From: Spirochaetota bacterium | GTDB taxonomy: Bacteria > Spirochaetota > Spirochaetia > SPDA01 > JAJSAL01 | Assembly (NCBI GenBank): GCA_024274705.1 | Contig: JAJSAL010000167.1 | Coordinates: forward strand, 1 to 61,684 | Reading direction: 5' to 3' | DNA length: 61,684 bases | Shown: piece after piece, positions 20,923 to 38,852 of the stretch | Layout of the letters: each line of letters opens with the position of its first letter | Numbering within the stretch: the first letter of the stretch is position 1 | Notes under the pieces: generated by a model | The model's database searches: none | What the model was told of the DNA's origin: nothing | What the model saw: only the letters and a program-made list of their open reading frames with translations | Made by a program: the position numbers and the translations under genes

Positions 20923-22239
20923 GTGTTTACAGGAACCTTTTCCCTGGTATTACTTTTCTTTATAGTGCTGTTACACCTTGGGGGGATGGATAACATGATC
21001 GGCTGGATTCTTACACGGTACGGTAGAAAAAAGACAACCCGGTATCTCGAATTCGACGGATCAGAGCCGGTTGTGGTTCCTGAGCCTGATTCCGACTCAC
21101 CCAATCTCCTCTATATTCACATTCCCTTCTGTGAAGTACTCTGTCCCTACTGTTCTTTCAACCGGATCCCCTTTAATAAAAATCTGTCGGAACGGTATTT
21201 CGACGCACTCATGAAAGAAATGGAGATCTACTATAATAAGGGGTACTCCTTCGAGTCGGTATACGTAGGAGGAGGAACACCTACGGTTCTCCCGGATCGT
21301 CTTGCCCAGGTGCTCCGAAGGACCGCACAACTCTGGCCTGTAAAAAGCATTTCCGTGGAAACCAACCCGAATCATCTGACAGATCCGGTCCTGGAATCCC
21401 TTAAGGAGGCAAAGGTCAACCGCCTTTCCGTGGGAGTTCAAACTTTTAACGACCCCCTGCTGAAGAAACTGAAGCGGTATGAAAAATACGGATCAGGAAG
21501 GGACATACAGGAGCGGCTTTCCAGGATTCAGGGAACCTTCGACACCCTCAATATCGACATGATCTATAACCTTCCTACCCAGACAGACCAGATGGTGAGA
21601 AACGACCTTGAAGTAATCGATGCACTTAAGCCGGACCAGGTCGCTTTCTATCCTCTTATTGCTTCGAAGCTGAAAAAACACGAGATTGCCGAAGCCCTGG
21701 GGACAGTGGATTACCGGAAGGAAAAACGGCTGTATCATATTATCCGGAAGGACCTTTCCCGGGAATATCATCAGGCTTCATCATGGTGTTTTTCCCGAAC
21801 ACCGGGCCTTATCGATGAATACATCGTAGACTACCGGGATTACGCGGGGCTTGGTTCAGGCTCATTCGGCTATATAGGCGGCGCACTTTACTCGAACACA
21901 TTTTCAGTTCCCGGCTATATTCAGCGCCTTGAGATGGGAACTCTTCCCCTGGCAGGGAAGAGAGTGTTCTCCCTTAAGGAAAAGCTCCAGTACGATCTCC
22001 TCATGTCACTCTTCATCGGCTCCATCTCTCTGGACCGGCTGGAAAAGACCTACGGTTCTCCCGGAATCCGGGCTATCCGTCCCGCCCTGCTGGCACTCAG
22101 CCTGTCCGGTGCTGTCAGAAAAGAAGGGAACAACCTGGTTACAACGGAAAAAGGGAACTATTATTTTGTCATACTTATGAGGGAGTTTTTTAACGGGGTG
22201 AACACGTTGAGGGAACAGATGCTTTCCAGAACTGCTTGA
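20923..22239 (+). CDS. radical SAM coproporphyrinogen-oxidase-like (HemN/HemW/HutW-type) protein
   Basis: Radical SAM motif HIPFCEVLCPYC near residue 67, followed by YVGGGTPT, ETNP, NRLSVGVQTF and NIDMIYNLPTQT, the signature of the HemN/HemW/HutW group. Its role is heme-related oxidation, heme handling or a radical methylation-type reaction; the exact function cannot be set. The frame opens at a GTG (20923) with AAGGGGA 7 bases upstream, which would add the hydrophobic segment FSLVLLFFIVLL. An ATG at 20995 preceded by GGGGGG would give a 414-residue soluble protein. Its place between quinone and cytochrome c maturation genes supports a heme role. Confidence 0.8.
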   Translation: MFTGTFSLVLLFFIVLLHLGGMDNMIGWILTRYGRKKTTRYLEFDGSEPVVVPEPDSDSPNLLYIHIPFCEVLCPYCSFNRIPFNKNLSERYFDALMKEMEIYYNKGYSFESVYVGGGTPTVLPDRLAQVLRRTAQLWPVKSISVETNPNHLTDPVLESLKEAKVNRLSVGVQTFNDPLLKKLKRYEKYGSGRDIQERLSRIQGTFDTLNIDMIYNLPTQTDQMVRNDLEVIDALKPDQVAFYPLIASKLKKHEIAEALGTVDYRKEKRLYHIIRKDLSREYHQASSWCFSRTPGLIDEYIVDYRDYAGLGSGSFGYIGGALYSNTFSVPGYIQRLEMGTLPLAGKRVFSLKEKLQYDLLMSLFIGSISLDRLEKTYGSPGIRAIRPALLALSLSGAVRKEGNNLVTTEKGNYYFVILMREFFNGVNTLREQMLSRTA

Positions 22240-26656: not shown

Positions 26657-27088
26657 ATGAAACACAGTAAAAGTCTCATTCTCATTATCGCCGTACTGGT
26701 ACTCTTCTTAGGTGCAGTAATGTCGGCATCCGCACAGGACACCCTTAAACTTTCGGGTATTACCACAACGGACGATCATCCCAACGGATGTGTCGACTGT
26801 CATAAACAGTCCGGCGGCAATGACTACCGCCTCAATACGGCACTGAAAGAGATCAGCGGCCACCCGGACGTAACGAAAATCGTCAAGACCGTGCCCAAGG
26901 ATTGCGGGATGTGTCACAAACCCAATTCTTCCGCAGGATCTCTCACTCTTCAGGTACATAAGATTCACTTCGAAAACCCGGATGAAAACCATTTCATCTC
27001 CAATTACCAGGGAGAATGTCTGGCATGCCACAGCCTTGATCTTGCCACAGGAGAGATGAGCGTTAAAAGCGGTCCGAAAAACTGGTAA
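26657..27088 (+). CDS. periplasmic triheme c-type cytochrome heading the pump-2 operon
   Basis: A 143-residue exported protein. Signal peptide SKSLILIIAVLVLFLGAVMS with a likely ASA/QD cleavage site, then three heme motifs CVDCH, CGMCH and CLACH with additional His residues (HPNG, SGHPDV, VHKIHFE) that may serve as distal ligands. This resembles small class III-like cytochromes. GTAGGAGGAAAG precedes the ATG. The NqrA/RnfC-type gene of the second pump starts 34 bases later, which suggests it is the pump's external electron partner. The arrangement recalls the multiheme cytochrome MmcA that heads the rnf operon of Methanosarcina acetivorans (established), but here it is a different, smaller protein. 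Confidence 0.85.
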   Translation: MKHSKSLILIIAVLVLFLGAVMSASAQDTLKLSGITTTDDHPNGCVDCHKQSGGNDYRLNTALKEISGHPDVTKIVKTVPKDCGMCHKPNSSAGSLTLQVHKIHFENPDENHFISNYQGECLACHSLDLATGEMSVKSGPKNW

Positions 27089-27122
27089 CGCCTGCAAAAC
27101 CTTTGTATAACGGGTTTAGGAA

Positions 27123-28610
27123 ATGACAACAAGAAAGAAATCGTTCAAAGGCGGATATCGATTCAGGAATTTCAAAGGAGAGCCTGTCGACACAATCGAC
27201 AGGCTCCCTTCTCCTAAACAGGTCTTGATTCCGCTTAAAAGAAGCACAGGGGCTGAAGTCCAGCCCCTCGTACAAGCCGGAGATACCGTACAGGCCGGAC
27301 AGATTATCGGACGCAGCGACGATGCAGTTTCCTCCCCTGTCCACGCAACTGTTTACGGTACGGTAACGGCGCTCAAAAAAAGGGACCTCCTGGGAGAACC
27401 GGTAACTGTAGCAGTCATCGACACCGGTGAGAAAAAAGAAGGTGGGGGTTTTCTGCCTCTGAAAGGAGCCTCTCCGGAATGGCAGAACCTTTCCCGGGAA
27501 ACAATCGAAGAACTCTTCTACCTATCCGGCGTTTCCGGTCTGGGCTCCGGTATGCCTACACGGTGGAACAGTTCGGTTATATCCGCCGGTGACGTGACCC
27601 ACATCATCATCCATTCCGGAGAAAACGACCTGTTTCAGCCTTCTCCGTCTGTTTTTCTCAAGGGCGCCGGTTCCGGTTCCTTTTCCGCAGGCATCCGGAT
27701 ACTGAAGAAGCTCTACACGGAAGCGGATGTTTCCATAGTTGTCCGCGAAGACAACAAAGGGCTTATCTCCAAATTGAATACAATGCCGGAGATACAGAAC
27801 AGCACCCTGGTCCTGACAAAACCGAAATATCCCCAGGATAAAGAGGAAGTTCTGGTTTCGACTGTTCTCGGAAAAGAGTATCCCTATGGTTTTTCCGCTA
27901 TACACATGGGGGTACTGGTTGTTCCTTTCCAGTCGATCCTTCATATCGCGGAAGCGGTGATCCTGGGAAAGCCGGTAATAGAACGGACCATCGCCTTAGG
28001 CGGTGAGTCCTTCGAACAAAACCGCCACGTAACCGTTCCCATCGGAACACCGCTGGAAGACGTCCTTCATTCCCGGCTGTCTTCCGGCAATCACAGAATC
28101 GTGATGGACAGTCTTAACTCAGGGCTTGGAGTCGAGGACCTATCGACACCGGTACTCTGGGACACCCGTGGAGTCATCGCTATTCCAGAAGGAACCGAAG
28201 GAGAGATGCTGGGATTCGCCATGCCGGGATTCATGAAAGACTCATACTCCGTCACCTTTGCTTCCCGGTTTCTCCCGATAAAAAAACGGGTAACCACAAA
28301 TATCCATGGAGAACATCGTGCATGTCTGCAGTGCGGCTTCTGTATCAACGTGTGTCCGGTGCAGATCCTTCCGAACCTCTTATTCCGCTACGTAGAGAGA
28401 GGTATCATTGAAGACAGCCTGGCTGCTTTCAATATTTTCAACTGCATCGACTGTAATCTCTGTACCTACGTTTGTACATCAAAACTTCCCGTGGCCGGTA
28501 TGATTAAAACCGGAAAAGAGAAGATGAGGAAAGAAGGCATAGATCCGGCAGCAGAAACTGCACGCCGTCACGAATTGAAAGGTCTTAAGATCCAGGAAGG
28601 ACAGGATTGA
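27123..28610 (+). CDS. NqrA/RnfC-type subunit with two [4Fe-4S] motifs (pump 2)
   Basis: A 495-residue cytoplasmic subunit, longer than the pump-1 copy. The N-terminal RnfC/NqrA barrel is followed by VSGLGSGMPTRWNSS near residue 140, a degenerate form of the GxGGAGFPT flavin/NADH loop of RnfC, so direct NADH binding here is doubtful. The C-terminal Fe-S sites are CLQCGFCINVCP (near residue 400) and CIDCNLCTYVC (near 440); the second is followed by Thr instead of Pro. TTTAGGAA precedes the ATG. It overlaps the next gene by one base. The clear divergence from pump 1 argues for an old duplication or separate acquisition. Confidence 0.88.
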   Translation: MTTRKKSFKGGYRFRNFKGEPVDTIDRLPSPKQVLIPLKRSTGAEVQPLVQAGDTVQAGQIIGRSDDAVSSPVHATVYGTVTALKKRDLLGEPVTVAVIDTGEKKEGGGFLPLKGASPEWQNLSRETIEELFYLSGVSGLGSGMPTRWNSSVISAGDVTHIIIHSGENDLFQPSPSVFLKGAGSGSFSAGIRILKKLYTEADVSIVVREDNKGLISKLNTMPEIQNSTLVLTKPKYPQDKEEVLVSTVLGKEYPYGFSAIHMGVLVVPFQSILHIAEAVILGKPVIERTIALGGESFEQNRHVTVPIGTPLEDVLHSRLSSGNHRIVMDSLNSGLGVEDLSTPVLWDTRGVIAIPEGTEGEMLGFAMPGFMKDSYSVTFASRFLPIKKRVTTNIHGEHRACLQCGFCINVCPVQILPNLLFRYVERGIIEDSLAAFNIFNCIDCNLCTYVCTSKLPVAGMIKTGKEKMRKEGIDPAAETARRHELKGLKIQEGQD

Positions 28611-29638
28611 TGAAACCCCTGAAATCGATACTCACTAAACTATCTCACGCAAAACGGCTAAGCCGGTTCAAGACTATTTTCGAGACCATGGAAGGGATCA
28701 TTTTCGGTATTACCGAAACCACCCCCGGAGCGCCTCACATCGTTGATAACATCGAGATCAAGCGATATATGTCGTTCGCTATTATCGCGCTGCTCCCAAC
28801 GACCGTGGCGTCCATCGTGTTTTACGGGTGGCATGCCGTATTAGTTATCCTGGCGTGCTACATTGCAGGCGGTATCGTGGAAGTCGCTTTCGCCGTTATT
28901 CGAAAGCGGCATATAGAAGAAGGATTTCTCGTTACCGGTCTGATTTTTCCACTGGTGCTTCCTCCCACGGTGCCCATCTGGGTGGCCGTGGTCGGTATCG
29001 CATTCGGTGTACTATTCGGAAAGGAAATCTTCGGAGGAACCGGAAGAAATATCTTCAATCCCGCACTGGTGGGAAGGCTGTTCATCACCATAGCGTTTCC
29101 CCAGATCATGTCCGCCTCCTGGCAGATACCCTTTACCGATGCAATTACCGCTGCAACCCCCCTGGGGATGATGAAGGCTGCCGGTGAAGCCGTACCGTAC
29201 AGGGACCTCCTTCTCGGGCTTACCGCAGGGAGTATGGGAGAACTATTCCGGATAGGCATCATTGCCGGAGGGATCTTTCTTATGGCTTCGAAAGTCGCCA
29301 ACTGGAGAGTTCCTATCTTTTATCTGGGTACGGTTGTCCTCTTTTCCTTTATCGGGAACATCGCGGTACCGGCGAAGATCGCTCCACCTTTGTTCCAGTT
29401 CCTCTCCGGAGGCCTTCTCTTCGGGGCATTCTTTATGGCCACAGACCCGGTCACCTCTCCTTTTACCGGCACAGGTAAGATCTTCTTCGGAATCCTCCTG
29501 GGTATCCTTACGGTACTGATACGGAGTTTTTCAGGGTATACCGAAGGGGTCATGTTCAGCATCATCTTTATGAATGCCCTGGCTCCATTGCTCGATCATT
29601 TCGTACTCACTGCCAGGTACAAGGTGGCAAAGACATGA
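28610..29638 (+). CDS. NqrB/RnfD-type membrane subunit (pump 2)
   Basis: A 342-residue polytopic protein with GGTGRNIFNPALVG, the FMN-attachment segment TAATPL (Thr at about residue 183) and GGLLFGAFFMATDPVTSP. It is highly similar to 3766 in all these blocks. It carries covalent FMN and contributes to quinone-side electron transfer in Nqr/Rnf pumps. I use the ATG at 28610, which overlaps the previous TGA; a TTG lies one codon before. The next gene overlaps by 4 bases (ATGA). Confidence 0.92.
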   Translation: MKPLKSILTKLSHAKRLSRFKTIFETMEGIIFGITETTPGAPHIVDNIEIKRYMSFAIIALLPTTVASIVFYGWHAVLVILACYIAGGIVEVAFAVIRKRHIEEGFLVTGLIFPLVLPPTVPIWVAVVGIAFGVLFGKEIFGGTGRNIFNPALVGRLFITIAFPQIMSASWQIPFTDAITAATPLGMMKAAGEAVPYRDLLLGLTAGSMGELFRIGIIAGGIFLMASKVANWRVPIFYLGTVVLFSFIGNIAVPAKIAPPLFQFLSGGLLFGAFFMATDPVTSPFTGTGKIFFGILLGILTVLIRSFSGYTEGVMFSIIFMNALAPLLDHFVLTARYKVAKT

Positions 29639-30210
29639 AAGACAAGATCCTGATGATTGTATTCGTTCTCGTTCTTGGAACGATACTTACCACTGCCCTG
29701 GTTGCGGTCAACGGATATACAAAACCGATTATCGACCGGCACGCGGAAATCAAGCTCAAATCAAATATCCTTTCCGCACTGCAAATTCCGTTTACCCTGG
29801 ATACCATCGATGATGTATTCGACCAGTCGATAACGGAAAAAAGTGCCGGGGAAAGGACATACTACGAAGCAACAGACGGAACCCTTGCTCTCCCTTACGA
29901 GGGTTCCGGGCTCTGGGGACCGATTATCGGCATTATTGCCATGAACTCCGACCTCTCTCAGATTACGGGAATTACCATCATGCAGCAGGAAGAAACGCCC
30001 GGCCTGGGGAGCAGGATTGCTGAGCGGGAGTACCTGGACACGTATATCGGAAAAGAGTTTGCTCCGGAGCTGGAAATGCTCCCCCCGGGTAAAGGGAAGG
30101 GGAGCAACCAGGTTGATGGTATTTCCGGAGCCACCATGTCCAGCAAGGCGTTCGTAAAGATCCTGAACGACGAATTCAACGTTTACGATTCGCTCATTGG
30201 AGGAAAGTAA
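29635..30210 (+). CDS. NqrC/RnfG-type FMN-binding subunit (pump 2)
   Basis: A 191-residue protein, with an N-terminal membrane anchor (residues 4-24) and an exported FMN domain with the covalent-flavin motif SGAT, Thr167 in DGISGATMSS. Other family blocks are GSGLWGPIIGIIAM and QQEETPGLGSRI. This flavin faces the periplasm in known pumps, a natural place to meet the triheme cytochrome encoded at the head of the operon (inference). The ATGA start is coupled to the upstream gene. Confidence 0.92.
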   Translation: MKDKILMIVFVLVLGTILTTALVAVNGYTKPIIDRHAEIKLKSNILSALQIPFTLDTIDDVFDQSITEKSAGERTYYEATDGTLALPYEGSGLWGPIIGIIAMNSDLSQITGITIMQQEETPGLGSRIAEREYLDTYIGKEFAPELEMLPPGKGKGSNQVDGISGATMSSKAFVKILNDEFNVYDSLIGGK

Positions 30211-30211
30211 C

Positions 30212-30826
30212 ATGGCTGTAGCTGTAAAAAATAAAACCATGCAGACGATCCTGAACGGATTGTGGAGGGACCACCCGATATTCTCCATGCTTTTAGGGAT
30301 ATGTTCCGCCCTGGCTGTGTCAAACAAGTTGGAAAATGCCATTGCTATGGGAGCCGGGGTTACCTTTGTACTCGTTGCCACGGGAATCATCATTTCCCTC
30401 CTCCGAAAGATGATTCCCCGGAGGGTGAGGATGATTACCTATATGCTCATCATAGCGTCCTTCGTCATCATTGTAGACCGTTTCCTTAAAGCCTTTTATC
30501 CGGCGATCAGTGATTCCATCGGCCCTTATGTGGGCCTCATCATTACAAACTGTATTATCATGGGACGGGCAGAGGCATTCTATATCCAGAACAACACCTT
30601 CCAGTCTTTACTGGATGCCCTGACAAACGGTATAAGCTATACCTACACTCTGGGTATTATCGCAGTTATCCGGGAAGTGCTAGGGTTCGGTACAATCCTG
30701 GGATTCCAGGTCATGCCTGATGGATGGACAAACTGGGTCGTCATGGCCATGGCTCCAGGAGCATTTTTCGTTCTCGGCGTGTTCATCTGGGTGACCAGGA
30801 CCATGGCAAAGATGGATTCGGAGTAG
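30212..30826 (+). CDS. NqrD/RnfE-type membrane subunit (pump 2)
   Basis: A 204-residue membrane protein with HPIFSMLLGICSALAVSNKL and GPYVGLIITNCIIMGRAEAF, the NqrD/RnfE signatures that flank the intramembrane iron site. I choose the ATG at 30212, since TTGGAGGAAAG lies just before it; a TTG at 30197 overlaps the previous gene and is less likely. Paralogue at 5466. Confidence 0.92.
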   Translation: MAVAVKNKTMQTILNGLWRDHPIFSMLLGICSALAVSNKLENAIAMGAGVTFVLVATGIIISLLRKMIPRRVRMITYMLIIASFVIIVDRFLKAFYPAISDSIGPYVGLIITNCIIMGRAEAFYIQNNTFQSLLDALTNGISYTYTLGIIAVIREVLGFGTILGFQVMPDGWTNWVVMAMAPGAFFVLGVFIWVTRTMAKMDSE

Positions 30827-30836
30827 GGGGAGAGAG

Positions 30837-31424
30837 ATGGCATTACAGCTGATTACCATATTTATTGCTGCGATTCTTACGCACAATATCGCCCTCACCT
30901 ATCTGCTGGGCATGTGTCCTTTTATTTCCCTGTCCCGGAGTCTTAAGACGGCCTCAGGGATGGGATTTGCCGTCATCTTTGTAGTGGTACTTACAGTGCT
31001 TATCAACTGGCCGATCTATAACCTCATCCTGGTACCTACCGGAAGCGAACTTATCTACTACATCGTATTAATCATTGTAATTGCGGCCAGTGTACAGCTG
31101 GTGGAAATGATCATGGAGCGGTTCTTCCCGGCCCTTCAGGCGGCCTTCGGTATCTTTCTTCCCCTTATCACGGTAAACTGTACGATCCTTGCTGTTTCCC
31201 TGTTTACCGTTATCAGGAATTATGACTACATCACATCGATTGTTTTCGGCCTCGGATCAGCCATCGGGTGGATCCTCGCCATTGTGATCGTAGCGGCAAT
31301 AAACGAGAAACTGAAACTGATCGGGGACATCCCTAAGGGATTGCGGGGTTCCGGGATCATCATGATCACCTCCGGGATCATCGCTTTAGCTTTTCTCGGA
31401 TTCGCAGGGATGGTGAACTTATGA
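30837..31424 (+). CDS. NqrE/RnfA-type membrane subunit (pump 2)
   Basis: A 195-residue membrane protein of the same length as the pump-1 copy, with LTYLLGMCPFISLSRSL and FLPLITVNCTILAVSLF. GGGGGAGAGAG precedes the ATG. Its stop overlaps the start of the shortened NqrF gene (ATGA), which ties that small protein firmly to the pump. Confidence 0.92.
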   Translation: MALQLITIFIAAILTHNIALTYLLGMCPFISLSRSLKTASGMGFAVIFVVVLTVLINWPIYNLILVPTGSELIYYIVLIIVIAASVQLVEMIMERFFPALQAAFGIFLPLITVNCTILAVSLFTVIRNYDYITSIVFGLGSAIGWILAIVIVAAINEKLKLIGDIPKGLRGSGIIMITSGIIALAFLGFAGMVNL

Positions 31425-31873
31425 GTTTTATGGCAGTTATCATCATGAATGTTATTCTTGTGGTCATTACGGTAATCCTGGCGATTGCGGACAAGCTTCT
31501 CGTAAGCTATGGCACCTGCAAGATCACCGTCGACCGGGAAGGAGAAGATAAAGAGGATTTCGATGTGGAAGGTGGGGATAACCTCCTTACCTACCTTACC
31601 GATAAAGGCATCGAGATCAACTCCTCCTGCGGGGGCAAGGGAAGCTGCGGATACTGTAAGTGCATCATCACATCCGGTGGAGGCATGATCCTTCCCACGG
31701 AAGAGATATACATGAGCCGGCAGGAAAAGGCTGAAGGGATGAGGCTTGCCTGCCAGGTGAAAGTGAAACAAGACATGGAAATTCTTATCCCGAACTTTCT
31801 TACCATTATCCGTCAGATGGTGGTGAACAAGAAATTCGATCCTAACAAGAGATGGCTGGTGAAGATAAAATGA
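31421..31873 (+). CDS. shortened NqrF: membrane anchor plus [2Fe-2S] domain only (pump 2)
   Basis: A 150-residue protein equal to the first third of NqrF. Membrane helix at residues 6-24, [2Fe-2S] ligands Cys70, Cys76, Cys79 and Cys111 in the same context as the full NqrF at 6730 (SCGGKGSCGYCK, RLACQVKVK). It then stops after IIRQMVVNKKFDPNKRWLVK. The FAD and NAD domains are absent, and the next codons in the same frame do not continue them. Its stop TGA overlaps the ATG of a HydC/NuoE homologue. I infer that this subunit receives electrons from the HydBC-like diaphorase encoded downstream. It is clean, conserved and operon-embedded, so decay is unlikely. Confidence 0.88.
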   Translation: MSFMAVIIMNVILVVITVILAIADKLLVSYGTCKITVDREGEDKEDFDVEGGDNLLTYLTDKGIEINSSCGGKGSCGYCKCIITSGGGMILPTEEIYMSRQEKAEGMRLACQVKVKQDMEILIPNFLTIIRQMVVNKKFDPNKRWLVKIK

Positions 31874-32349
31874 ATGCCCTTGAACCGACTATAGATGCAA
31901 TCCGACCGATTCTGGACAGTTTTATCGAAAAGAGAGGCTCCCTGATCGGACTACTACAAGATATTCATGAAACGTACGGCTACCTCCCGGAAGAAATACT
32001 TAAGCAGGTCTCTCAAGAGCTGGATGTTCCACTGGGTAAGTTTTACAGTCTCGCAACGTTCTACACTTCCTTCAGACTGGAGCCCATGGGTAAACATCAC
32101 ATTTGCACCTGTGTAGGCACCGCTTGTCATGTGAAAGGGGCACCGGCTATTGTCGATACCTTCAAGAGGGAGCTGAACATACAGGAGGGCGAGACCACGG
32201 CAGACGGCACCTTTACACTGGACACGGTGAACTGCCTCGGCGCCTGCGCCCTGGCTCCCCTGATTGTCGTAGATGGCGAATATTACGGGAAGTCAAAACC
32301 GAACAAAGTATCCAAGCTGATTGAACAATATAAGAATGAAACGGAGTGA
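31870..32349 (+). CDS. HydC/NuoE-type [2Fe-2S] subunit
   Basis: A 159-residue thioredoxin-like [2Fe-2S] protein of the NuoE/HydC family. Ligands are Cys81, Cys86, Cys122 and Cys126 (CTCVGTAC and CLGAC). LPEEILKQVSQELDVPLGKFYSLATFY is the family N-terminal helix region. I choose the ATG at 31870: it overlaps the NqrF-like stop (ATGA) and has GGTGA upstream. An ATG at 31852 would add six residues. It is the small partner of the NuoF-like protein at 35489 and is separated from it by a regulatory gene set. Confidence 0.92.
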   Translation: MNALEPTIDAIRPILDSFIEKRGSLIGLLQDIHETYGYLPEEILKQVSQELDVPLGKFYSLATFYTSFRLEPMGKHHICTCVGTACHVKGAPAIVDTFKRELNIQEGETTADGTFTLDTVNCLGACALAPLIVVDGEYYGKSKPNKVSKLIEQYKNETE

Positions 32350-32713
32350 CCGGGACAGTACAACCTTTAAAACAGTGATACGAACCCTGGAGGCGAAGGT
32401 CCTCACAGGGAATGTTGATGAGGATGAACGTATACAGTCCGTGTGTGCATCAGACCTTATGAGCGATGTTCTGTCTTTCAGCAGTTCCCAGGCCCTCCTG
32501 GTCACGGGACTGACCAATCCACAGGTTGTTCGGACAGCTGATGTTACAGATATTGCCGCGATCTGCTTTGTATTCGGCAAGATTCCACGGAAGGAAACTA
32601 TTGAACTTGCGGAGAACAGCGGGATAATCCTGCTCAGTACAGACCTTTCGCTGTACTGTACATGCGGGAAGTTATACGATTTGAATATTCCCGGCTGTTC
32701 AGTAAAAACATGA
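32336..32713 (+). CDS. DRTGG-domain-like protein, first copy
   Basis: A 125-residue protein, start inside the end of the preceding gene. It matches the small DRTGG-type proteins that accompany HydABC-type [FeFe] hydrogenase operons: an N-terminal segment ending VCASDLMSDVLSFSSSQALL, then ICFVFGKIPRKETIELAENSGIILLSTD. The role in those operons is not established; a nucleotide-sensing or regulatory role is usually proposed. It overlaps the CBS/ATPase gene by 4 bases (ATGA). Confidence 0.72.
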   Translation: MKRSDRDSTTFKTVIRTLEAKVLTGNVDEDERIQSVCASDLMSDVLSFSSSQALLVTGLTNPQVVRTADVTDIAAICFVFGKIPRKETIELAENSGIILLSTDLSLYCTCGKLYDLNIPGCSVKT

Positions 32714-33636
32714 GAGAAGGGAAAGAGGTCACCAAGATCCAGGAACTCGTGTATGAACTCAAGACGGAGGATGCGATGACGGATCATCTCATCTCCATCT
32801 GTCCGGAGACCCAGATGGCTGAACTCAGGACCATTCTCCGGGAAAACAAGATCTCCGGTACCCCGGTAGTGCAGGACGGCAGGCTGGTGGGTATTATCAG
32901 TATCGAAGATTTCATCAACTGGCTTGCAGATGACGGTAAAACCTGCCCGGTTAAAGACAGGATGACTTCCCGGGTGGAGACGGTCTATACCGACGACCCC
33001 CTGATCAAGGTGGTGGGAAAACTCGACCGCTTCGGCTTTGGAAGGCTGCCTGTTGTAGACCGAAGTTCCGGGCTCCTTAAAGGGATCATTACCAAGGGAG
33101 ACATCATCGAGCGGCTGCTGCACAAACTGCAGATCGAGTACCAGGAAGAGGAGATCCACCGGTACAGGGCGAGTCATCTCTTCGAGGACATCATCGCTGA
33201 TTCCGTTTCCCTGCACTTAGACTATGAGATCGGGGAACGGAAGATCGAGAAGGGGGGCACTGTTGCAAGCAGTTTGAAAAAAACGCTGCGCCGGCTCGGT
33301 ATCCATCCGGACATCATTCGCAGGGCGTCGATTTTAACCTACGAAGCGGAGATGAATGTGATTATCTATGCGTATTACGGGGAAGTCAATGTTACGGTTT
33401 CTCCTAACTGCCTTCATATGACGATCCGGGACAAGGGACCGGGTATTCCCGATATCGAAAAAGCGATACAACCCGGTTACTCCACCGCCCCCTCGTGGGT
33501 GCAGGAACTGGGTTTCGGTGCGGGTATGGGACTGCATAATATCAAATCCTGCGCTGATGAACTGGAAGTTACCTCCACAGTAGGAGAGGGAACAACCCTG
33601 AAGGTTCAGGTAGAAGTAGGCGATACATGTATTTGA
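32710..33636 (+). CDS. CBS-pair protein with an RsbW-like ATPase domain
   Basis: A 308-residue protein. Two CBS domains (about residues 15-135; MTDHLISICPETQMAELRTI and MTSRVETVYTDDPLIKVVGK) are followed by a GHKL ATPase of the anti-sigma/RsbW type with EAEMNVIIYAYYG, DKGPGIPD and GAGMGLHNIKSCADEL. There is no phosphoacceptor His, so it is not a classical sensor kinase. CBS pairs sense adenylates or NAD(P)-type ligands. The same gene type is standard in hydrogenase HydABC clusters. The start overlaps the previous gene (ATGA). Confidence 0.85.
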   Translation: MREGKEVTKIQELVYELKTEDAMTDHLISICPETQMAELRTILRENKISGTPVVQDGRLVGIISIEDFINWLADDGKTCPVKDRMTSRVETVYTDDPLIKVVGKLDRFGFGRLPVVDRSSGLLKGIITKGDIIERLLHKLQIEYQEEEIHRYRASHLFEDIIADSVSLHLDYEIGERKIEKGGTVASSLKKTLRRLGIHPDIIRRASILTYEAEMNVIIYAYYGEVNVTVSPNCLHMTIRDKGPGIPDIEKAIQPGYSTAPSWVQELGFGAGMGLHNIKSCADELEVTSTVGEGTTLKVQVEVGDTCI

Positions 33637-33968
33637 AAGATTTAGCGGAACAGTTTGAGATGACGGCTCACGATCCTGATTTAGACTTAGAGAAGGAGAT
33701 AGCCAGGGGTTATGCCGGCGATCTATTGAGTGATGTCATAGCCCATGCAGAAGAGGGAGATGTGTGGATTACCCTGCAGGTGCATATGAATATCGTTGCC
33801 GTTGCAAGCATGAAAGATCTGGCAGGGATCATCCTTATCGGCGGGAGAAAACCGAATCAGGATACCGCGGAGAAGGCTTCGGAAGAAGGGATACCGATAC
33901 TGACATCCGATCTGCCGGCTTTCGAACTGATCGGCAGGCTGTATGCTGCAGGTATACCCGGGGTGTGA
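33627..33968 (+). CDS. DRTGG-domain-like protein, second copy
   Basis: A 113-residue homologue of the protein at 32336 (YAGDLLSDVIAHAEEGDVWIT, IILIGGRKPNQDTAEKASEEGIPILTSD). It overlaps the CBS/ATPase gene by 10 bases and is followed directly by the PHP gene. The repeated order DRTGG, CBS-ATPase, DRTGG, PHP, ATPase is the usual regulatory set of NAD-linked [FeFe] hydrogenase operons. Confidence 0.75.
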   Translation: MYLKDLAEQFEMTAHDPDLDLEKEIARGYAGDLLSDVIAHAEEGDVWITLQVHMNIVAVASMKDLAGIILIGGRKPNQDTAEKASEEGIPILTSDLPAFELIGRLYAAGIPGV

Positions 33969-34682
33969 GTGAAGGAATACCCACTGGACCTTCATGTGCA
34001 CACCTGCCTGTCTCCATGCGGAGACGCACGGATGGTTCCTACAGCGATTGTGGAATATGCAGTTAAGGCCGGGCTTGCAGGCATCGCCATATGCGACCAC
34101 AATTCAGCGGAGAATATTCCTCCCGTACGGGATGCCGCTCGAAAGAGGGGCATATTCGTCATCGGTGGGATGGAGATAACCACCCGGGAAGAAATCCACG
34201 TGCTTGGACTCTTCCCCGGGGATAACGAGCTCTTTGACGTACAGAATGAAGTGTACAGGAACCTGCCTGGAAACAACGACGAAAAAGCCTTCGGAAGACA
34301 ATGGGTAATCGATTCCGGGGATTTCGTTACGGGAGAGAACTCCCGCCTCCTGGCAGGGGCATGTGCTCTCTCCCTGGAACAGGTGGTGGATTTGATACAC
34401 CGAAACCGCGGGATTGCCGTTGCATCCCACGTGGACCGACCGGTTTTCAGCGTTATCAGTCAGCTGGGATTTATACCGGAGGGAGCCCACTTCGATGCAC
34501 TGGAGCTGACCGGAGCCGGAGAAGACACCAGCCTGCCTGATATTTCCAGGATCCGAAGCTCCGATGCTCACTTTCCGGAAGAAATCGGTAAAAGGCGGAG
34601 TGTTCTTCTGATGGATCATCTCGGTTTTGAAGAGGTAAGAAGGGCCCTCGCATCGGGAAGGGTGAGAGGGGAGCAAGGATAA
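33969..34682 (+). CDS. PHP-domain phosphoesterase-like protein
   Basis: A 237-residue PHP (polymerase and histidinol phosphatase) metal-binding domain: HVHTCLSPCGDARM near residue 8, AICDHNSAENI near 41, IGGMEITTREEIHVLGLF near 62, ASHVDRP near 157 and IRSSDAHF near 194. It would hydrolyse a phosphoester with divalent metals. The substrate is unknown. The start is GTG directly after the previous stop. PHP proteins of this kind are found in hydrogenase operons. Confidence 0.82.
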   Translation: MKEYPLDLHVHTCLSPCGDARMVPTAIVEYAVKAGLAGIAICDHNSAENIPPVRDAARKRGIFVIGGMEITTREEIHVLGLFPGDNELFDVQNEVYRNLPGNNDEKAFGRQWVIDSGDFVTGENSRLLAGACALSLEQVVDLIHRNRGIAVASHVDRPVFSVISQLGFIPEGAHFDALELTGAGEDTSLPDISRIRSSDAHFPEEIGKRRSVLLMDHLGFEEVRRALASGRVRGEQG

Positions 34683-34684
34683 CC

Positions 34685-35104
34685 GTGCAGGATTTGTCCC
34701 TCCACGTAATGGATATCCTGGAAAACTCTATTACAGCCAGGGCAACGAAAGTAATTGTCAAGGTGGTGATGAGGACCGGAAAAGAGGAGATGCTCCTGGA
34801 GATCATCGACAACGGGATGGGTATGGATGCGGAAACAGCAGCCCGTGCGCTGGACCCGTTTTTTACCACGAAGACGGGTAAGAAGACCGGGTTAGGTCTT
34901 TCGCTCCTGAAACAGGCGGCGGAACAGTGCGGGGGAGAGATGGTCCTTACTTCCGGCAAAGGGAGGGGAACCAGGATCCGGGCTTTATTCTGTACCGGCC
35001 ACCCGGATATGAAACCTGTAGGAGATATGGCAGGAACCATCGATCTTTTAAGGATGACTCATCCTGAAATCACCTTTGAATATACATGTGAAATGGAGGA
35101 TTGA
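34685..35104 (+). CDS. stand-alone GHKL ATPase (histidine-kinase-like/anti-sigma type)
   Basis: A 139-residue ATPase domain with DILENSITARA (N box), DNGMGMDAETAARALDPFFTTK and GLGLSLLKQAAEQCGG. There is no dimerisation/His domain. The C-terminus DLLRMTHPEITFEYTC is typical of the version encoded in hydrogenase operons. The start is GTG. Together with the CBS/ATPase protein it may form a partner-switch that responds to nucleotide or redox state, which is inference. Confidence 0.83.
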   Translation: MQDLSLHVMDILENSITARATKVIVKVVMRTGKEEMLLEIIDNGMGMDAETAARALDPFFTTKTGKKTGLGLSLLKQAAEQCGGEMVLTSGKGRGTRIRALFCTGHPDMKPVGDMAGTIDLLRMTHPEITFEYTCEMED

Positions 35105-35107
35105 CCT

Positions 35108-35488
35108 ATGAAATTGAAACCGGAAGATCTTGAAAAGATAAGTGATAACATGCGCTCTACCACCAGCTTAAGGGATGGTGCAGGCCGTGCAAAAATCACC
35201 GTGCATATGGGCACTTGCGGCATCGCTTCCGGTGCCCGGGAAATCATGAAAGCATTCCTGGACAAGATCCAGAAAACAAACATTACCGACGTCATTTTTA
35301 CGACTTCCGGGTGCGCAGGACTGTGCAGTCACGAACCCATGGCCACGGTGGAACTCAAGGACCAGGCACCGGTAAAATACATTAACCTGACGGAAGAGAA
35401 GGTGAACACCATATTTCAAAAGCATGTAATGGATGGAAATGTCGTAGAAGAATATGCATTAGCCAAAGGGAGCGAGAGGTTAGGATAG
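35108..35488 (+). CDS. thioredoxin-like [2Fe-2S] ferredoxin
   Basis: A 126-residue (2Fe-2S) ferredoxin-domain protein as found between the ATPase and HydB genes of hydrogenase operons. Cys residues are Cys37 (MGTCGIASGAREIM), Cys69 and Cys73 (SGCAGLCSHEP). Only three are present, as seems usual for this family, so the fourth ligand or true cluster status is uncertain. The next gene starts at the base following its stop. Confidence 0.82.
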   Translation: MKLKPEDLEKISDNMRSTTSLRDGAGRAKITVHMGTCGIASGAREIMKAFLDKIQKTNITDVIFTTSGCAGLCSHEPMATVELKDQAPVKYINLTEEKVNTIFQKHVMDGNVVEEYALAKGSERLG

Positions 35489-37282
35489 ATGCCAAACTAC
35501 AGAACCAATCTGATGTTATGCGCCGGAACAGGATGTGTTTCGAACAAATCCTTCCAGGTAAAAACGGCCCTGGAAGAAGAACTTAAAAAGCAGGGCCTCC
35601 AGGACGAAGTACAGGTCGTTGCTACAGGCTGCCAGGGTTTCTGCGCCCAGGGGCCCATTGTGGTTGTACAGCCCGAAGGTATTTTTTATCAGCTTCTGCA
35701 AACGGAAGATGTACCCCACCTAGTGGAAGAACACTTCCTGAAAGGACGCCCTGTTGAGAAGCTGATGTACACCCCGAGGAAAGACGAAGCGCCGGTTCCC
35801 AGGATACAGGATATTGATTTTTTCGGAAAGCAGAAACTCGTTGCCCTGGCAAACAGGGGGATCATCGATCCTGAAGATATTGATGAGTACATCGGCAGGG
35901 AGGGTTACAAGGCCCTGGCAAAAGCACTTACTTCCATGACCCCGAAAGAGGTCATCGATGAAGTAAAAAAGGCCGGCCTCCGGGGACGGGGCGGTGCAGG
36001 CTTCCCCACCGGGACAAAATGGGAGTTCTGCCGGAATTCCAAGGGTGATGAAAAGTACATTATCTGTAATGCCGACGAAGGCGACCCGGGTGCCTTTATG
36101 GACCGGAGTATCGTGGAATCCGACCCCCATGCTCTTCTGGAAGGTATGCTTATCGGCGCGTACGCAATCGGCGCAACCGAAGGATTTATCTATATCAGGG
36201 ATGAGTATCCCCTGGCCTTAAAAAGGATCCTGAAAGCTATTGACGATGCAAAAGAGTACGGCTTGATCGGTGAAAACATCCTGGGCACCGAATTCTCTTT
36301 CACCCTCGGTGTTAACAGAGGGGCCGGAGCTTTCATATGCGGAGAAGAGACCTCACTCATCAATTCTCTGGAAGGAATCGTACCGGAACCCAGGGTGCGT
36401 CCGCCCTATCCCGCCGTATCGGGATTTATGGGAAAACCTACGAACATCAACAACGTGGAAACCTGGGCAAATGTCCGGCACATCATCAACCGCGGTGCAG
36501 ACTGGTTCCAGGGGATAGGTACGGACACGAGTAAAGGGACCAAGGTATTTTCCCTGGTAGGAAAAGTGCGGAACACCGGCCTTGTGGAAGTTCCCATGGG
36601 TATTACCCTGAAGGAAATGATATTTGACATGGGCGGCGGTATAGCCGACGATAAAAAGTTCAAAGCCGTTCAGATCGGCGGGCCCTCCGGCGGATGTATC
36701 CCGGATTCTCTCCTCGATCTGCCGGTGGATTACGAATCCCTCAAGAAAGTGGGGTCTATCGTAGGTTCCGGTGGTATGATCGTCATGGACGAGAACAACT
36801 GCATGGTAGAAGTAGCCAGGTACTTTCTCCAGTTCACCCAGGGAGAGTCCTGCGGAAAGTGCCCTCCCTGCAGAGAGGGAACCCGGCACATGCTCAACAT
36901 CCTTACGGCTATCACCGAAGGAAGGGGGGAGCCGGGAGATATAGAACTCCTTGAAAAATTCGGCGGCCTCATCAAAGAAACCGCCCTCTGCGCCCTGGGC
37001 AACACTGCTCCGAACCCGGTCCTGACCACCATAAGGTACTTCCGGCACGAATATGAGGCCCATATAAACGAGAAGAAATGCCCTTCCCATGAATGCAAGA
37101 CTCTTATCACTTTTACCATCAATCCGGAAAACTGTACCGGGTGTACGGTATGTGCCCGGAACTGTCCGGTGTCGTGTATTGCGGGAGAGCGGAAAGAGGT
37201 CCATGTTATCGACCAGGAACGGTGTATCAAATGCGGTATGTGCCACACCGTCTGTAAGTTCGACGCAGTGAGGGTAGACTGA
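35489..37282 (+). CDS. HydB/NuoF-type NADH- and FMN-binding subunit
   Basis: A 597-residue flavoprotein. An N-terminal thioredoxin-like [2Fe-2S] domain (Cys11, Cys16, Cys48, Cys52), the FMN/NADH site with GLRGRGGAGFPTGTKW (near residue 160) and NADEGDPGAFMDR, an SLBB region, the NuoF [4Fe-4S] site CGKCPPCREGT (near 454), and a C-terminal double ferredoxin CTGCTVCARNCP/CIKCGMCHTVCK (549-590). This domain order is that of HydB of NAD-dependent and electron-bifurcating [FeFe] hydrogenases. It should oxidise NADH or reduce NAD+. Its stop and the next ATG overlap. No H-cluster hydrogenase follows. Confidence 0.94.
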   Translation: MPNYRTNLMLCAGTGCVSNKSFQVKTALEEELKKQGLQDEVQVVATGCQGFCAQGPIVVVQPEGIFYQLLQTEDVPHLVEEHFLKGRPVEKLMYTPRKDEAPVPRIQDIDFFGKQKLVALANRGIIDPEDIDEYIGREGYKALAKALTSMTPKEVIDEVKKAGLRGRGGAGFPTGTKWEFCRNSKGDEKYIICNADEGDPGAFMDRSIVESDPHALLEGMLIGAYAIGATEGFIYIRDEYPLALKRILKAIDDAKEYGLIGENILGTEFSFTLGVNRGAGAFICGEETSLINSLEGIVPEPRVRPPYPAVSGFMGKPTNINNVETWANVRHIINRGADWFQGIGTDTSKGTKVFSLVGKVRNTGLVEVPMGITLKEMIFDMGGGIADDKKFKAVQIGGPSGGCIPDSLLDLPVDYESLKKVGSIVGSGGMIVMDENNCMVEVARYFLQFTQGESCGKCPPCREGTRHMLNILTAITEGRGEPGDIELLEKFGGLIKETALCALGNTAPNPVLTTIRYFRHEYEAHINEKKCPSHECKTLITFTINPENCTGCTVCARNCPVSCIAGERKEVHVIDQERCIKCGMCHTVCKFDAVRVD

Positions 37283-37875
37283 TGATCAACATAAGCATAA
37301 ACGGAAAGCCATACAGCTACGAAGAGGAACTGACCATTTACCATGCAGCGAAAGAAGCAGGCATCTGGATACCCACCCTCTGCTACAACGAAAAACTGAA
37401 GCCCTATGGCGGCTGCAGGGTTTGTCTTGTCGAAGTTACCGGGAAACCGGTACTCGTTCCTTCCTGTGCGACTAATATCACGGAAGGAATGGAGATTGTC
37501 ACTGATTCGGACAGGGTAAAAGGGGGAAGGCAATTCATCATCGAGCTTCTCCTGGCCCGAACTCCCGGGGCAAAGGAAATACAGGAACTCGCAAAGAAAT
37601 TTGGTGTTGATCCCACCGGTGACAGCGCCCAGGGCTCCGTATCCACTTATCTCCTGAAACGGGCAGAACCTCCGTTCGAGACAACGTGTATCCTCTGCGG
37701 ACTGTGTGTCCGGGTATGTGCGGAGGTTACAGAGCGGCATGCATTGAGTTACGAGGACAGGGGTATGAAGCGGAGGATAACACCGCCGTTCTCGAAGGTT
37801 GCAGATACATGTATCGGCTGCGGCTCCTGTGCCTATGTATGCCCAACAAATTGCATCACCATCGAAGAAGCATAA
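37282..37875 (+). CDS. HydA/NuoG-like Fe-S protein lacking the H-cluster domain
   Basis: A 197-residue protein equal to the N-terminal relay of HydA. [2Fe-2S] domain with Cys34, Cys45, Cys48 and Cys62, then a double [4Fe-4S] ferredoxin with Cys136, 139, 142 and 146 and Cys177, 180, 183 and 187. The His-ligated [4Fe-4S] segment that normally lies between them is missing, and so is the whole catalytic H-cluster domain. No H-cluster motif (TSCCP, MPC, CxxGC) appears in the following bases before the polyprenyl synthase. It must therefore pass electrons to another acceptor, and I infer the shortened NqrF. Confidence 0.9.
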   Translation: MINISINGKPYSYEEELTIYHAAKEAGIWIPTLCYNEKLKPYGGCRVCLVEVTGKPVLVPSCATNITEGMEIVTDSDRVKGGRQFIIELLLARTPGAKEIQELAKKFGVDPTGDSAQGSVSTYLLKRAEPPFETTCILCGLCVRVCAEVTERHALSYEDRGMKRRITPPFSKVADTCIGCGSCAYVCPTNCITIEEA

Positions 37876-37967
37876 AGAGCCTCGGAGGGTGGCATAAATA
37901 AAGATTTCCCATGGGAATTGAATTGCGTATACTGAATGAGAAGAATAAAACAGGAGCTTCAAGAAGG

Positions 37968-38852
37968 ATGTCCCGGACTTTGGAACAGGTGTACAAACCG
38001 ATCCGTAAAGAACTTGAAAAAGTTGAAGATGTGATCAAAGAACAGCTGAAAACCGTCTTGAGTGACCGGAGAAGCCAAGGCATAAACGACAAGTTCATCG
38101 AAGAAGTCACAAACCACCTCTTCCGCAAGCCTGGAAAAAAACTGAGACCCGCACTGGTACTCATGTCTGCCGGCATCTTCGGTGCATACGGCAGGAACCG
38201 GCGTAAAGCCCTGGTAGAGCTCGCAGCAGCCGTAGAACTGATCCACTCTGCGTCCCTCATCCATGACGACATCATCGATGACGCGGATCAGCGCCGCCAT
38301 GAAGTATCTATGAACAAACAGTTCGATAATACCATCGCGGTCCTTACCGGGGACATCCTGTATGCCCAGTTTTTCTCTCTCCTTACCCACCTGCCGGATA
38401 TCGACGATTCACTGAAACTCGGCCTGTTCGGCTTGTTTTCCCGGCTCACCCGGAATATGTGTATCGGTGAAATATTTCAGCACGAAATACTTAACAGACG
38501 GTTCCTGCCGGATGAAAAGGAGTATCTGAAGGTCCTGGAAAACAAGACCGCCCTCCTTATGTCCGCCTGCTGTGAATGCGGCGCCCGGGTGAATGAAGCT
38601 GAAGAAGAATCCGCCAGACATCTTAAGAATTTCGGACTCAATTTCGGGCTTGCATTTCAGCTCGTGGACGATTACATTGACAGGGACAGTCCTTTAAAGG
38701 CAGAGGTGGATCTTCTCCACAAAGCCGAATCGTATATTGATAAAGCCAGAAAAGAGCTCGGTGCAGTTTCGACCAATGGCAGAAAAATTCATCTGGAAAA
38801 TCTCTGCGATTTCGTACTGTCCAGAGCGAAGGTCAAACAACCTGTCGGATAA
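37968..38852 (+). CDS. polyprenyl diphosphate synthase
   Basis: A trans-isoprenyl diphosphate synthase of about 294 residues with the first aspartate-rich motif HDDIIDDADQRR and the second LVDDYIDRD. FRKPGKKLRPALVLMSAG is the family N-terminal block. It builds the polyprenyl chain, probably for menaquinone made with the UbiA-like enzyme at 19327. I prefer the ATG at 37968 (MSRTLEQVYKPI), with GGAGC upstream; the frame is open to an ATG at 37911 that would add 19 residues. It follows the HydA-like gene and precedes the kinase fusion, probably as one operon. Confidence 0.87.
   Translation: MSRTLEQVYKPIRKELEKVEDVIKEQLKTVLSDRRSQGINDKFIEEVTNHLFRKPGKKLRPALVLMSAGIFGAYGRNRRKALVELAAAVELIHSASLIHDDIIDDADQRRHEVSMNKQFDNTIAVLTGDILYAQFFSLLTHLPDIDDSLKLGLFGLFSRLTRNMCIGEIFQHEILNRRFLPDEKEYLKVLENKTALLMSACCECGARVNEAEEESARHLKNFGLNFGLAFQLVDDYIDRDSPLKAEVDLLHKAESYIDKARKELGAVSTNGRKIHLENLCDFVLSRAKVKQPVG

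What the first reader, a model, noticed from the sequence alone, without database searches (positions are those of the whole stretch)
31421..37875. Nqr-like pump whose NADH module appears to be replaced by a hydrogenase-type diaphorase
Seen: the last pump-2 gene encodes only the anchor and [2Fe-2S] domain of NqrF (150 residues, four Cys kept), while pump 1 in the same window has the full FAD/NADH version. The shortened gene overlaps (ATGA) the start of a HydC/NuoE homologue, and the set continues to HydB/NuoF and a HydA-like protein without an H-cluster. Known: NqrF accepts NADH electrons through FAD; HydBC does so through FMN. Inferred: NADH, perhaps with ferredoxin, enters through HydBC plus the small HydA-like relay and reaches the membrane complex through the small NqrF. 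I know of no described complex of this composition.
Basis: partly seen in the sequence, partly recalled or inferred. Interest (0 to 1): 0.95.

Follow-up and report, generated by a model that had tools for sequence, protein, structure and literature searches.

The report
Ion pump with electron-bifurcating input module
In this bacterium a membrane ion pump of the Nqr/Rnf family lacks its own NADH-reading part and is encoded in one row of genes with a hydrogenase-type module that is predicted to feed it electrons from NADH and ferredoxin; in other phyla the same small pump subunit is fused in one protein to a piece of that module, so the two likely act as one respiratory enzyme of a kind that our literature searches did not find described.

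Summary
Pump 2 (window 26657-37875) has a 150-aa NqrF with membrane anchor and four [2Fe-2S] cysteines but no FAD/NADH domain; it overlaps (ATGA) BfuC/HydC, and the run continues to BfuB/HydB and a BfuA/HydA without H-cluster. Of 43 public loci found through the pump's RnfA subunit, 36 have a NqrF without FAD/NADH part, 6 a full NqrF and no Bfu genes, 1 ends too early. In 35 of the 36, BfuC is next door (19) or fused to NqrF in one ORF of 316-325 aa (16; Planctomycetota, Desulfobulbaceae/Desulfofustis, Fibrobacterota, Lentisphaerota and others). The 120 best-listed database relatives of a fused protein all carry both domains. The RnfC/NqrA-like subunit keeps two [4Fe-4S] sites but not the RnfC FMN/NAD motifs, so BfuB holds the one well-preserved NAD site. 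Best reading: one 'Nqr-Bfu' complex, an Rnf/Nqr-type membrane Bfu enzyme beside the proposed Nuo-Bfu and Mbh-Bfu. Acceptor, direction and bifurcation are inferred, not shown; 17 of 24 carrier genomes tested lack MqnA and MenD over cut-off.

The parts
26657..27088 (+). small secreted-looking c-type cytochrome, three CxxCH; first gene of the run; accessory, present upstream in only some relatives
   Evidence: upstream of the pump also in L064, L069, L078 and divergently in L084
27123..28610 (+). RnfC/NqrA-like subunit, two [4Fe-4S] motifs kept, RnfC FMN/NAD motifs degenerate
   Evidence: fold nearest RnfC 9eri_C, TMt 0.84
28607..29638 (+). RnfD/NqrB membrane subunit (covalent-FMN motif T-A-A-T)
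   Evidence: Thr at the site in 29 of 30 rows
29635..30210 (+). RnfG/NqrC, FMN_bind, SGAT motif
   Evidence: G-A-T in 33 of 33 rows
30197..30826 (+). RnfE/NqrD membrane subunit; first in-frame start is used, the true start may lie a few codons in
   Evidence: both Cys in 32 of 32 rows
30837..31424 (+). RnfA/NqrE membrane subunit
   Evidence: Cys27 in 36 of 36 rows with a letter, Cys115 in 37 of 37
31421..31873 (+). short NqrF: anchor plus [2Fe-2S] domain, no FAD/NADH domain, conserved C-terminal tail
31870..32349 (+). BfuC/HydC/NuoE, thioredoxin-like [2Fe-2S]; ATGA overlap with short NqrF
32321..35104 (+). five regulatory-type genes: DRTGG-like, CBS-HATPase, DRTGG-like, PHP, HATPase; start of the first one uncertain
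   Evidence: both DRTGG matches under Pfam's cut-off; same block in many relatives
35108..35488 (+). thioredoxin-like [2Fe-2S] protein
   Evidence: kept beside BfuB in many relatives
35489..37282 (+). BfuB/HydB, 597 aa, FMN/NAD(H) domain and ligands for B1-B5
37282..37875 (+). BfuA/HydA-like, 197 aa, [2Fe-2S] plus two [4Fe-4S], no HC3 cluster, no H-cluster
37911..38852 (+). polyprenyl diphosphate synthase, next in the row; possible link to a prenylated redox lipid

Best explanation
Window 26657-37875 encodes an Nqr/Rnf-type membrane pump whose NqrF lacks the FAD/NADH domain, followed in the same row by a BfuCBA (HydCBA-type) module without a hydrogenase domain, and the two are predicted to form one complex in which NADH and reduced ferredoxin would enter at BfuBC, electrons would likely pass over BfuA to the [2Fe-2S] cluster of the short NqrF, and the pump would export Na+ (or H+). 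Shown: the gene content, the motif inventory, NqrF-BfuC adjacency or fusion in 35 of 36 loci, and the fusion in 16 of them. Inferred: (i) NADH and Fdred are confurcated at FMN/B1/B2/C1 as in other Bfu enzymes; (ii) BfuA (clusters A1, A2, A4, no A3) hands electrons to NqrF, which is held against BfuC by fusion or by contact; (iii) from there the usual Nqr/Rnf route is used: intramembrane [2Fe-2S] of RnfA/RnfE, FMN of RnfG, FMN/riboflavin of RnfD; (iv) the acceptor is most likely a membrane prenylquinone-like lipid, with the RnfC-like [4Fe-4S] pair as a relay whose partner is unknown. Feeding at about -400 mV in place of about -280 mV (potentials as given in PMC9304861) would give such a pump more drive per electron toward a low-potential acceptor. 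The reaction may be reversible.
For: Linkage: 36 of 43 loci have NqrF without the FAD/NADH part (0 of 36 match it by BLAST, 6 of 6 full NqrFs do); 35 of 36 have BfuC next (19) or fused (16); 26 of 43 show BfuC, BfuB and BfuA. Five of the 43 are the same contigs as the relatives. Fusion: in 16 of 16 the BfuC match lies in frame inside the NqrF ORF with its Cys pattern and no stop; one fused protein scanned gives nqrF (TIGR01941) N-terminally and NuoE/HoxE C-terminally. 1789 database proteins match it, 120 listed, 120 of 120 with PF00111+PF01257 and both cysteine patterns. A model of the fused protein has BfuC/NuoE chains as its top PDB matches (9mqx_C, 8a6t_C). Other NAD sites: FAD/NADH domain gone from NqrF; RnfC flavin/NAD motifs GLGGAAFP and NGAECEP in 0 of 32 RnfC/NqrA-like rows set against a true RnfC, 25 of them from short-NqrF operons. 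Bfu ligands: C438, H525, C531, C536 (B2) and the four B1 Cys in 29 of 29 BfuB and in L087 read separately; BfuA 12 cluster Cys in 25 of 25. Pump sites intact. Own-genome bookkeeping 5 pumps: 5 inputs. Tree: two full-NqrF, Bfu-less pumps (L098, L076) branch before the 39-row clade that holds all 37 short/fused rows, which fits a swap of the input module.
Against: No biochemistry. Acceptor: this genome has no MqnA and no MenD over cut-off; of 24 genomes tested (own and those of 23 of the 43 loci) 5 have MqnA over cut-off (2 by little) and 2 MenD, 17 neither, which speaks against ordinary menaquinone in most. L068 has short NqrF, BfuB and BfuA but no BfuC between; L096 has the fused protein but no BfuB next to it. 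L090, nested in the clade, has a full NqrF and no Bfu genes. BfuB is not of one stock: Desulfobulbaceae/Fibrobacterota BfuB form a separate clade, so the module was replaced or recruited more than once. The loss of the RnfC flavin site is by motif only: a loose pattern still matched the window's RnfC-like subunit (GLGSGMPT), Pfam's Nuo51 FMN domain matches it weakly, under cut-off, and its best NCBIfam model is rnfC, 218 bits against a cut-off of 246. Its kept [4Fe-4S] sites have no explained partner. The tree tool warned of long branches (L098 among them) and roots at the midpoint. The fused model is loose between domains (pTM 0.36, linker under 50 pLDDT), so it gives no cluster distance.
Confidence: 0.74

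Rival explanations
1. The BfuABC-like proteins are a separate soluble NADH:ferredoxin enzyme that is only co-transcribed; the short NqrF takes electrons straight from ferredoxin or another small carrier.
For: Carrier genomes hold several BfuB, 5 in this genome and 1 to 7 in the 12 searched, so a soluble pool is likely; a bare [2Fe-2S] domain could meet ferredoxin. In 20 of 36 loci NqrF and BfuC are separate genes (19) or BfuC is missing (1).
Against: 16 of 36 loci fuse NqrF to BfuC in one ORF and 120 of 120 listed database relatives do; 35 of 36 loci keep them adjacent or fused.
Confidence: 0.12
2. Same complex, opposite sense: the ion gradient pushes electrons from a membrane or periplasmic donor back to BfuBC, which bifurcates them to NAD+ and ferredoxin, as Rnf can run in reverse.
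For: Bfu and Rnf reactions are described as reversible (PMC9304861 abstract and sections, PMC12174285 abstract); 21 of 24 genomes tested also have an RnfB over cut-off, so another pump may do the forward job.
Against: Nothing in the sequence sets the direction.
Confidence: 0.25
3. The module is a plain NADH dehydrogenase input (no ferredoxin, no bifurcation), a mere replacement of the FAD domain by an FMN domain.
For: NuoEF-type input is common (general knowledge); three planctomycete BfuB lack the C-terminal 2x4Fe-4S part and have a GltD/Nfn-like domain there (the domain named by eye).
Against: B2 ligands including the His are in 29 of 29 and the C-terminal 4Fe-4S Cys in 25 to 29 of 29; the non-bifurcating homologues are said to lack B2-B5 (PMC9304861, section 5).
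Confidence: 0.15
4. BfuA docks on the RnfC-like subunit, not on NqrF, so that the module is the output and not the input of the pump.
For: The RnfC-like subunit keeps eight cluster Cys with no clear FMN site, so it needs a partner.
Against: The fusion and the constant neighbour are NqrF-BfuC; RnfC-like subunits with the same clusters occur in pumps with full NqrF and no Bfu genes (L076, L090, L098).
Confidence: 0.12
5. In the window's lineage electrons leave on the outside, from RnfG to the tri-haem cytochrome and on to extracellular acceptors, like the Rnf-MmcA pair of Methanosarcina.
For: Tri-haem cytochrome heads the run; c-type cytochrome assembly and other multihaem genes lie beside it; MmcA papers seen in the search listing only.
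Against: Such a gene lies upstream in 3 of 21 short-NqrF loci with at least 1.5 kb of upstream sequence (L069, L078, L084), and in L064, which has less.
Confidence: 0.25

Closest known systems
Nuo-Bfu (predicted 14-subunit Complex I-like Bfu enzyme, PMC9304861)
   Same: BfuABC in place of the NADH module of a membrane ion pump; NADH plus ferredoxin confurcation proposed
   Different: pump part is Nuo, proton-type; BfuA has A3; here the pump is Nqr/Rnf and NqrF is fused to BfuC in 16 of 36 loci
Mbh-Bfu (predicted, PMC9304861)
   Same: membrane pump plus BfuABC in one operon; BfuA with A1, A2, A4 only
   Different: NiFe membrane hydrogenase pump
Electron-bifurcating tungsten aldehyde oxidoreductase (PDB 9mqx; Wor-Bfu, organism A. 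mobile recalled)
   Same: BfuA that, like ours, lacks the HC3 Cys in the aligned linker; its BfuC is the top fold match
   Different: tungsten enzyme partner, no Nqr/Rnf pump
Na+-NQR
   Same: NqrF anchor and [2Fe-2S], NqrB-E core
   Different: FAD/NADH domain of NqrF missing; NqrA-like subunit has two [4Fe-4S]
RNF
   Same: RnfC-like first subunit with two [4Fe-4S], RnfD-G-E-A core
   Different: no RnfB in the operon; FMN/NAD motifs of RnfC degenerate
HydABC [FeFe] and NiFe-HydABCSL hydrogenases (7t2r, 7q4v, 7p5h)
   Same: BfuB aligns over 592 residues with NiFe-HydB without gaps
   Different: no H-cluster, no NiFe subunits

Membership tests
Bfu family (PMC9304861) | BfuB with FMN, SLBB, NADH_4Fe-4S and Fer4 domains (InterPro-Pfam correspondence recalled) | tested here: met
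   PF01512, PF10589, PF00037 over cut-off; PF10531 SLBB 24.7 bits, under its cut-off of 27
Bfu family (PMC9304861) | conserved ligands of B1-B5, incl. the His of B2 | tested here: met
   window has C438, T476, H525, C531, C536 (Cys476 is described as Cys or Thr, PMC8880783 passage); B1 29/29, B2 four ligands 29/29, B5 24-29/29, B3/B4 25-29/29 (2 of 30 loci with BfuB dropped: L081 cut by contig end, L087 wrongly extracted by my script; L087 read has B1-B4 but H and G at two B5 places)
Bfu family (PMC9304861) | BfuC thioredoxin-[2Fe-2S] and BfuA with [2Fe-2S] and 4Fe-4S domains | tested here: met
Bfu family (PMC9304861) | reversible bifurcation with NAD(H) and ferredoxin | not testable with these tools
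   needs enzyme assays
Bfu Type 2 (BfuA lacks A3 and A5, extra subunits present) | no HC3 (A3) cluster in BfuA | tested here: met
   absent in 25 of 25 BfuA (3 of 27 loci with BfuA dropped as partial); that A3 is the HC3 site is my reading and of PMC11406978 passages
Na+-NQR | NqrF with FAD/NADH domain | tested here: not met
   (TIGR01941 118.6 bits against cut-off 295); 0 of 36 loci
Na+-NQR | NqrA without redox centres | tested here: not met
   two C..C..C...C motifs
RNF | RnfB in the operon | tested here: not met
   no RnfB at C141 over cut-off; both RnfB lie at C100 and C110
RNF | RnfC with FMN/NAD site | tested here: not met
   motifs GLGGAAFP and NGAECEP in 0 of 32 rows; remnant GLGSGMPT in the window
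HydABC hydrogenase | H-cluster domain in HydA | tested here: not met
   197 aa, no hydrogenase domain
Nuo-Bfu / Mbh-Bfu | Nuo or Mbh membrane subunits in the operon | tested here: not met
   membrane genes are PF03116, PF02508 x2

The most novel reading that the evidence does not exclude
An 'Nqr-Bfu' respiratory complex: one enzyme that joins flavin-based electron bifurcation to a Na+-pumping Nqr/Rnf core through a fused or abutting NqrF-BfuC subunit. It has discarded both NAD sites of its ancestors (NqrF and RnfC) and draws NADH and ferredoxin through BfuBC, so NADH and ferredoxin oxidation are coupled to ion export in a single step in uncultured Spirochaetota, Planctomycetota, Desulfobulbaceae and Fibrobacterota.
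Probability: 0.62. Interest if true: 0.9.

Novelty: new variant of a known kind. Interest (0 to 1): 0.82.

Why it matters
Rnf/Nqr pumps and bifurcating enzymes are two main ways in which anaerobes balance ferredoxin and NADH. A pump that takes both at once would be a separate energy-coupling device, would help explain how one organism can run several Rnf/Nqr-type pumps side by side (five in this genome), and gives a natural gene fusion that points to where a Bfu module meets its membrane partner. It also supplies an evolutionary step: relatives with full NqrF and no Bfu genes branch just outside the clade.

Tried and rejected
Quinone acceptor test: MqnA and MenD searches did not support ordinary menaquinone in most genomes tested (23 of 24 have some MenD match, 2 over cut-off), so the acceptor is left open. 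Cytochrome as general acceptor: rejected as a rule. Structure of the fused NqrF-BfuC (30 rows): the linker is disordered, so no cluster distance was taken; the fold listing gives no ranges, and its top 50 hold no NqrF. RnfC-like model (26 rows; 3 of 28 available rows, L093, L103, L104, left out): RnfC fold, says nothing on cofactors. Literature: paper searches listed no paper that I could recognise as an Rnf/Nqr pump with BfuABC/NuoEF; of those listed I opened seven; the library holds open-licence PMC papers only. PMC8238504 (passages) mentions NuoF-like genes with MsrQ-like systems, not with Nqr. PMC4014512 (passages) derives NqrA from RnfC by loss of sites; PMC4814513 and PMC11406978 (passages) keep Rnf and HydABC/BfuABC apart. 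Weakness of counts: one search used two peptide patterns, so 43 loci are a lower bound; an even sample of the phylum gave 3 of 392 genomes (0 of 326 good-quality ones), nearest relatives 6 of 60, own included, so the system is uncommon. BfuB rows were cut at 640 or 560 residues for the tree, and its row L137_other is really the Nqr-linked BfuB of the L087 genome, labelled wrongly, so the printed change counts of that tree are not used. A first RnfA tree script failed on a wrong sequence; a corrected script ran. The control for neighbour genes used six stretches (100 kb) of one genome only, and the neighbour queries came from the window and from L067 and L085 themselves.


Full report
What is there. 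The pump-2 run lies on the + strand: tri-haem cytochrome (26657), RnfC/NqrA-like, RnfD/NqrB, RnfG/NqrC, RnfE/NqrD, RnfA/NqrE, short NqrF (31421-31873), BfuC (31870-32349), DRTGG-like, CBS-HATPase, DRTGG-like, PHP, HATPase, thioredoxin-[2Fe-2S], BfuB (35489-37282), BfuA (37282-37875), polyprenyl synthase (37911) and a histidine kinase/disulfide-reductase/rhodanese fusion (38864-41269), with overlaps or gaps of a few tens of bases. The ATGA overlap at 31870 was read directly. NCBIfam scores leave the pump between Nqr and Rnf: NqrB model 290 bits against RnfD 263, NqrE 192 against RnfA 189, the first subunit 218 for rnfC against 157 for the best nqrA model; all pump subunits are under their cut-offs except RnfD.

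The rest of the genome. The assembly has five NqrB/RnfD genes. C100 and C110 are Rnf-type with RnfB; C141 pump 1 and C143 have full NqrF; pump 2 has the short one. So no full input subunit is left over for pump 2. It also has five BfuB at E 1e-120 or better.

Conservation. In the 60 genomes six (own included) hold a short NqrF, the other five at 63-81% identity, all six followed by BfuC, in one case cut by the contig end. Full-length NqrFs match it at up to 49%, one short contig-end piece at 52% over 63 residues. A scan of the species-genome collection through RnfA gave 43 loci; five are the same contigs as those relatives. By gene order: 36 short NqrF, 6 full NqrF (L076, L090, L098, L103, L104, L105; none with Bfu genes in the locus), 1 undecided (L093, contig end). 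The FAD/NADH part of pump-1 NqrF matches 0 of the 36 and 6 of the 6. Of the 36, 20 have a separate gene of 149-152 aa, all in Spirochaetota records, and 16 a fusion of 316-325 aa. BfuC is missing only in L068. An even sample of the phylum found the short form in 3 of 392 genomes. The record titles of the 43 loci point to metagenome or uncultured assemblies.

The fusion. In 16 of 16 long ORFs the BfuC match lies inside, in frame, with its Cys pattern and no stop. One (L071) was scanned against NCBIfam: nqrF N-terminally, NuoE/HoxE C-terminally. The search with it matched 1789 proteins at E 1e-3; only the best 120 were listed and looked at, and 120 of 120 have PF00111 and PF01257 and both cysteine patterns. 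The alignment of 30 keeps the eight cluster Cys invariant. The model's top PDB matches are BfuC chains of the bifurcating aldehyde oxidoreductase, hydrogenases and transhydrogenases. This is the strongest sign that BfuBC sits on NqrF.

Cofactor inventory. BfuB: B1 Cys 29/29; B2 C438, H525, C531, C536 29/29, with Thr at 476 in the window; N-terminal B5 Cys 26, 26, 24 and 29 of 29; C-terminal 4Fe-4S Cys 25 to 29 of 29, three planctomycete proteins having a GltD/Nfn-like domain (by eye) there instead. BfuA: 12 cluster Cys in 25/25, HC3 motif in 0/25. BfuA of PDB 9mqx, the tungsten aldehyde enzyme, shows the same shortened linker. RnfA and RnfE membrane Cys, RnfG and RnfD flavin Thr are kept. The RnfC-like subunit keeps eight cluster Cys (seven invariant, the first nearly so, in 26 rows; L067 lacks the first motif, and the canonical NqrA of L103 and L104 have none). 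The RnfC flavin/NAD motifs are in 0 of 32 rows, pump 1 included, 25 of the rows being from short-NqrF operons. Against a full loss stand a remnant GLGSGMPT in the window and a weak Nuo51 match under cut-off. Hence the one well-preserved NAD site of this complex is in BfuB.

History. In the RnfA tree (71 rows) the Bfu-linked pumps form a 39-row clade (96/91) with 21 split rows (window included), 16 fused, the undecided L093, and one nested full-NqrF row (L090). L076 and L098, with full NqrF, branch just outside; the tool flags L098 as a long branch. BfuB tells a second story: most Nqr-linked BfuB form one clade (100/99) that also holds two BfuB (L113, L122) which, by my reading of ORF starts and without a profile search, sit among heterodisulfide-reductase-like genes (L139, L138), while those of Desulfobulbaceae and Fibrobacterota form another (100/100). 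Either the pump kept its fused NqrF-BfuC while BfuB was exchanged, or the module was recruited twice.

Mechanism. The Bfu paper (PMC9304861; abstract, section 4 part 1 and section 5 parts 1-2 read, other passages by search) proposes that BfuBC couples NADH and ferredoxin to a third partner, mostly through BfuA, and predicts Nuo-Bfu and Mbh-Bfu as membrane forms; Rnf is named once, in a reference title. The RNF/NQR review (PMC12174285; abstract, outline, one passage) has no occurrence of NuoE, HydB or Bfu. Applying the Bfu scheme, NADH and ferredoxin would confurcate at BfuBC and the electrons would enter the pump at the short NqrF. All of this is inference from anatomy.

Acceptor. For a prenylated lipid: genes for UbiA, UbiE, polyprenyl synthase or one radical-SAM family lie near 18 of 43 loci (15 of the 36 with short NqrF) and near 0 of 6 control stretches, 100 kb, of this genome; the UbiE hit is the query locus itself. 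Against: MqnA over cut-off in 5 of 24 and MenD in 2 of 24 genomes tested, neither in 17, this genome among them. A lipid made from a scavenged head group would reconcile the two, which is a guess. A tri-haem cytochrome heads the run in the window and lies upstream in four relatives. I leave the acceptor open and put the quinone-like lipid first.

Verdict. It is a new variant of the Bfu-plus-membrane-pump kind, with a pump type that I did not find proposed in the papers I could search.

Noticed in passing
L139 (ORFs 5481-13413) and L138 (ORFs 6758-14201): Two BfuB at 67-68% to the window's, outside Nqr operons, sit among genes that look by eye like heterodisulfide-reductase subunits; in L139 a 1088-aa ORF starts as BfuA and continues, with NiFe-hydrogenase-like ORFs nearby. 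Possibly an Hdr-Bfu enzyme (no profile search).
   Followed up: partly
G000 C143, locus L060 4732-8648: A NqrB-F type pump with full NqrF and no NqrA/RnfC gene found directly upstream.
   Followed up: no
window 2375-7821: Pump 1 also has an NqrA-like subunit with two [4Fe-4S] motifs and no FMN motif beside a full NqrF; the partner of those clusters is unexplained.
   Followed up: partly
L088, L091, L094 (BfuB ORFs of 1027-1039 aa): Planctomycete Nqr-linked BfuB has its C-terminal 4Fe-4S part replaced by what looks like a GltD/Nfn-like FAD domain, as reported for Hydrogenedentota sub-type I BfuB (PMC11406978, passages).
   Followed up: partly
window 20923-22239: Radical-SAM protein (PRK08629 family, over cut-off) whose relatives lie near 9 of the 43 loci; recalled lead: HemN-like methyltransferases act on menaquinone.
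   Followed up: partly
window 7883-8338 and 18748-19203: Two small proteins of 151 aa, each beside a membrane histidine kinase; the second has no Pfam match, the first was not scanned. A similar-looking pair (by eye) lies upstream of the pump in L079, 4153-6024.
   Followed up: no
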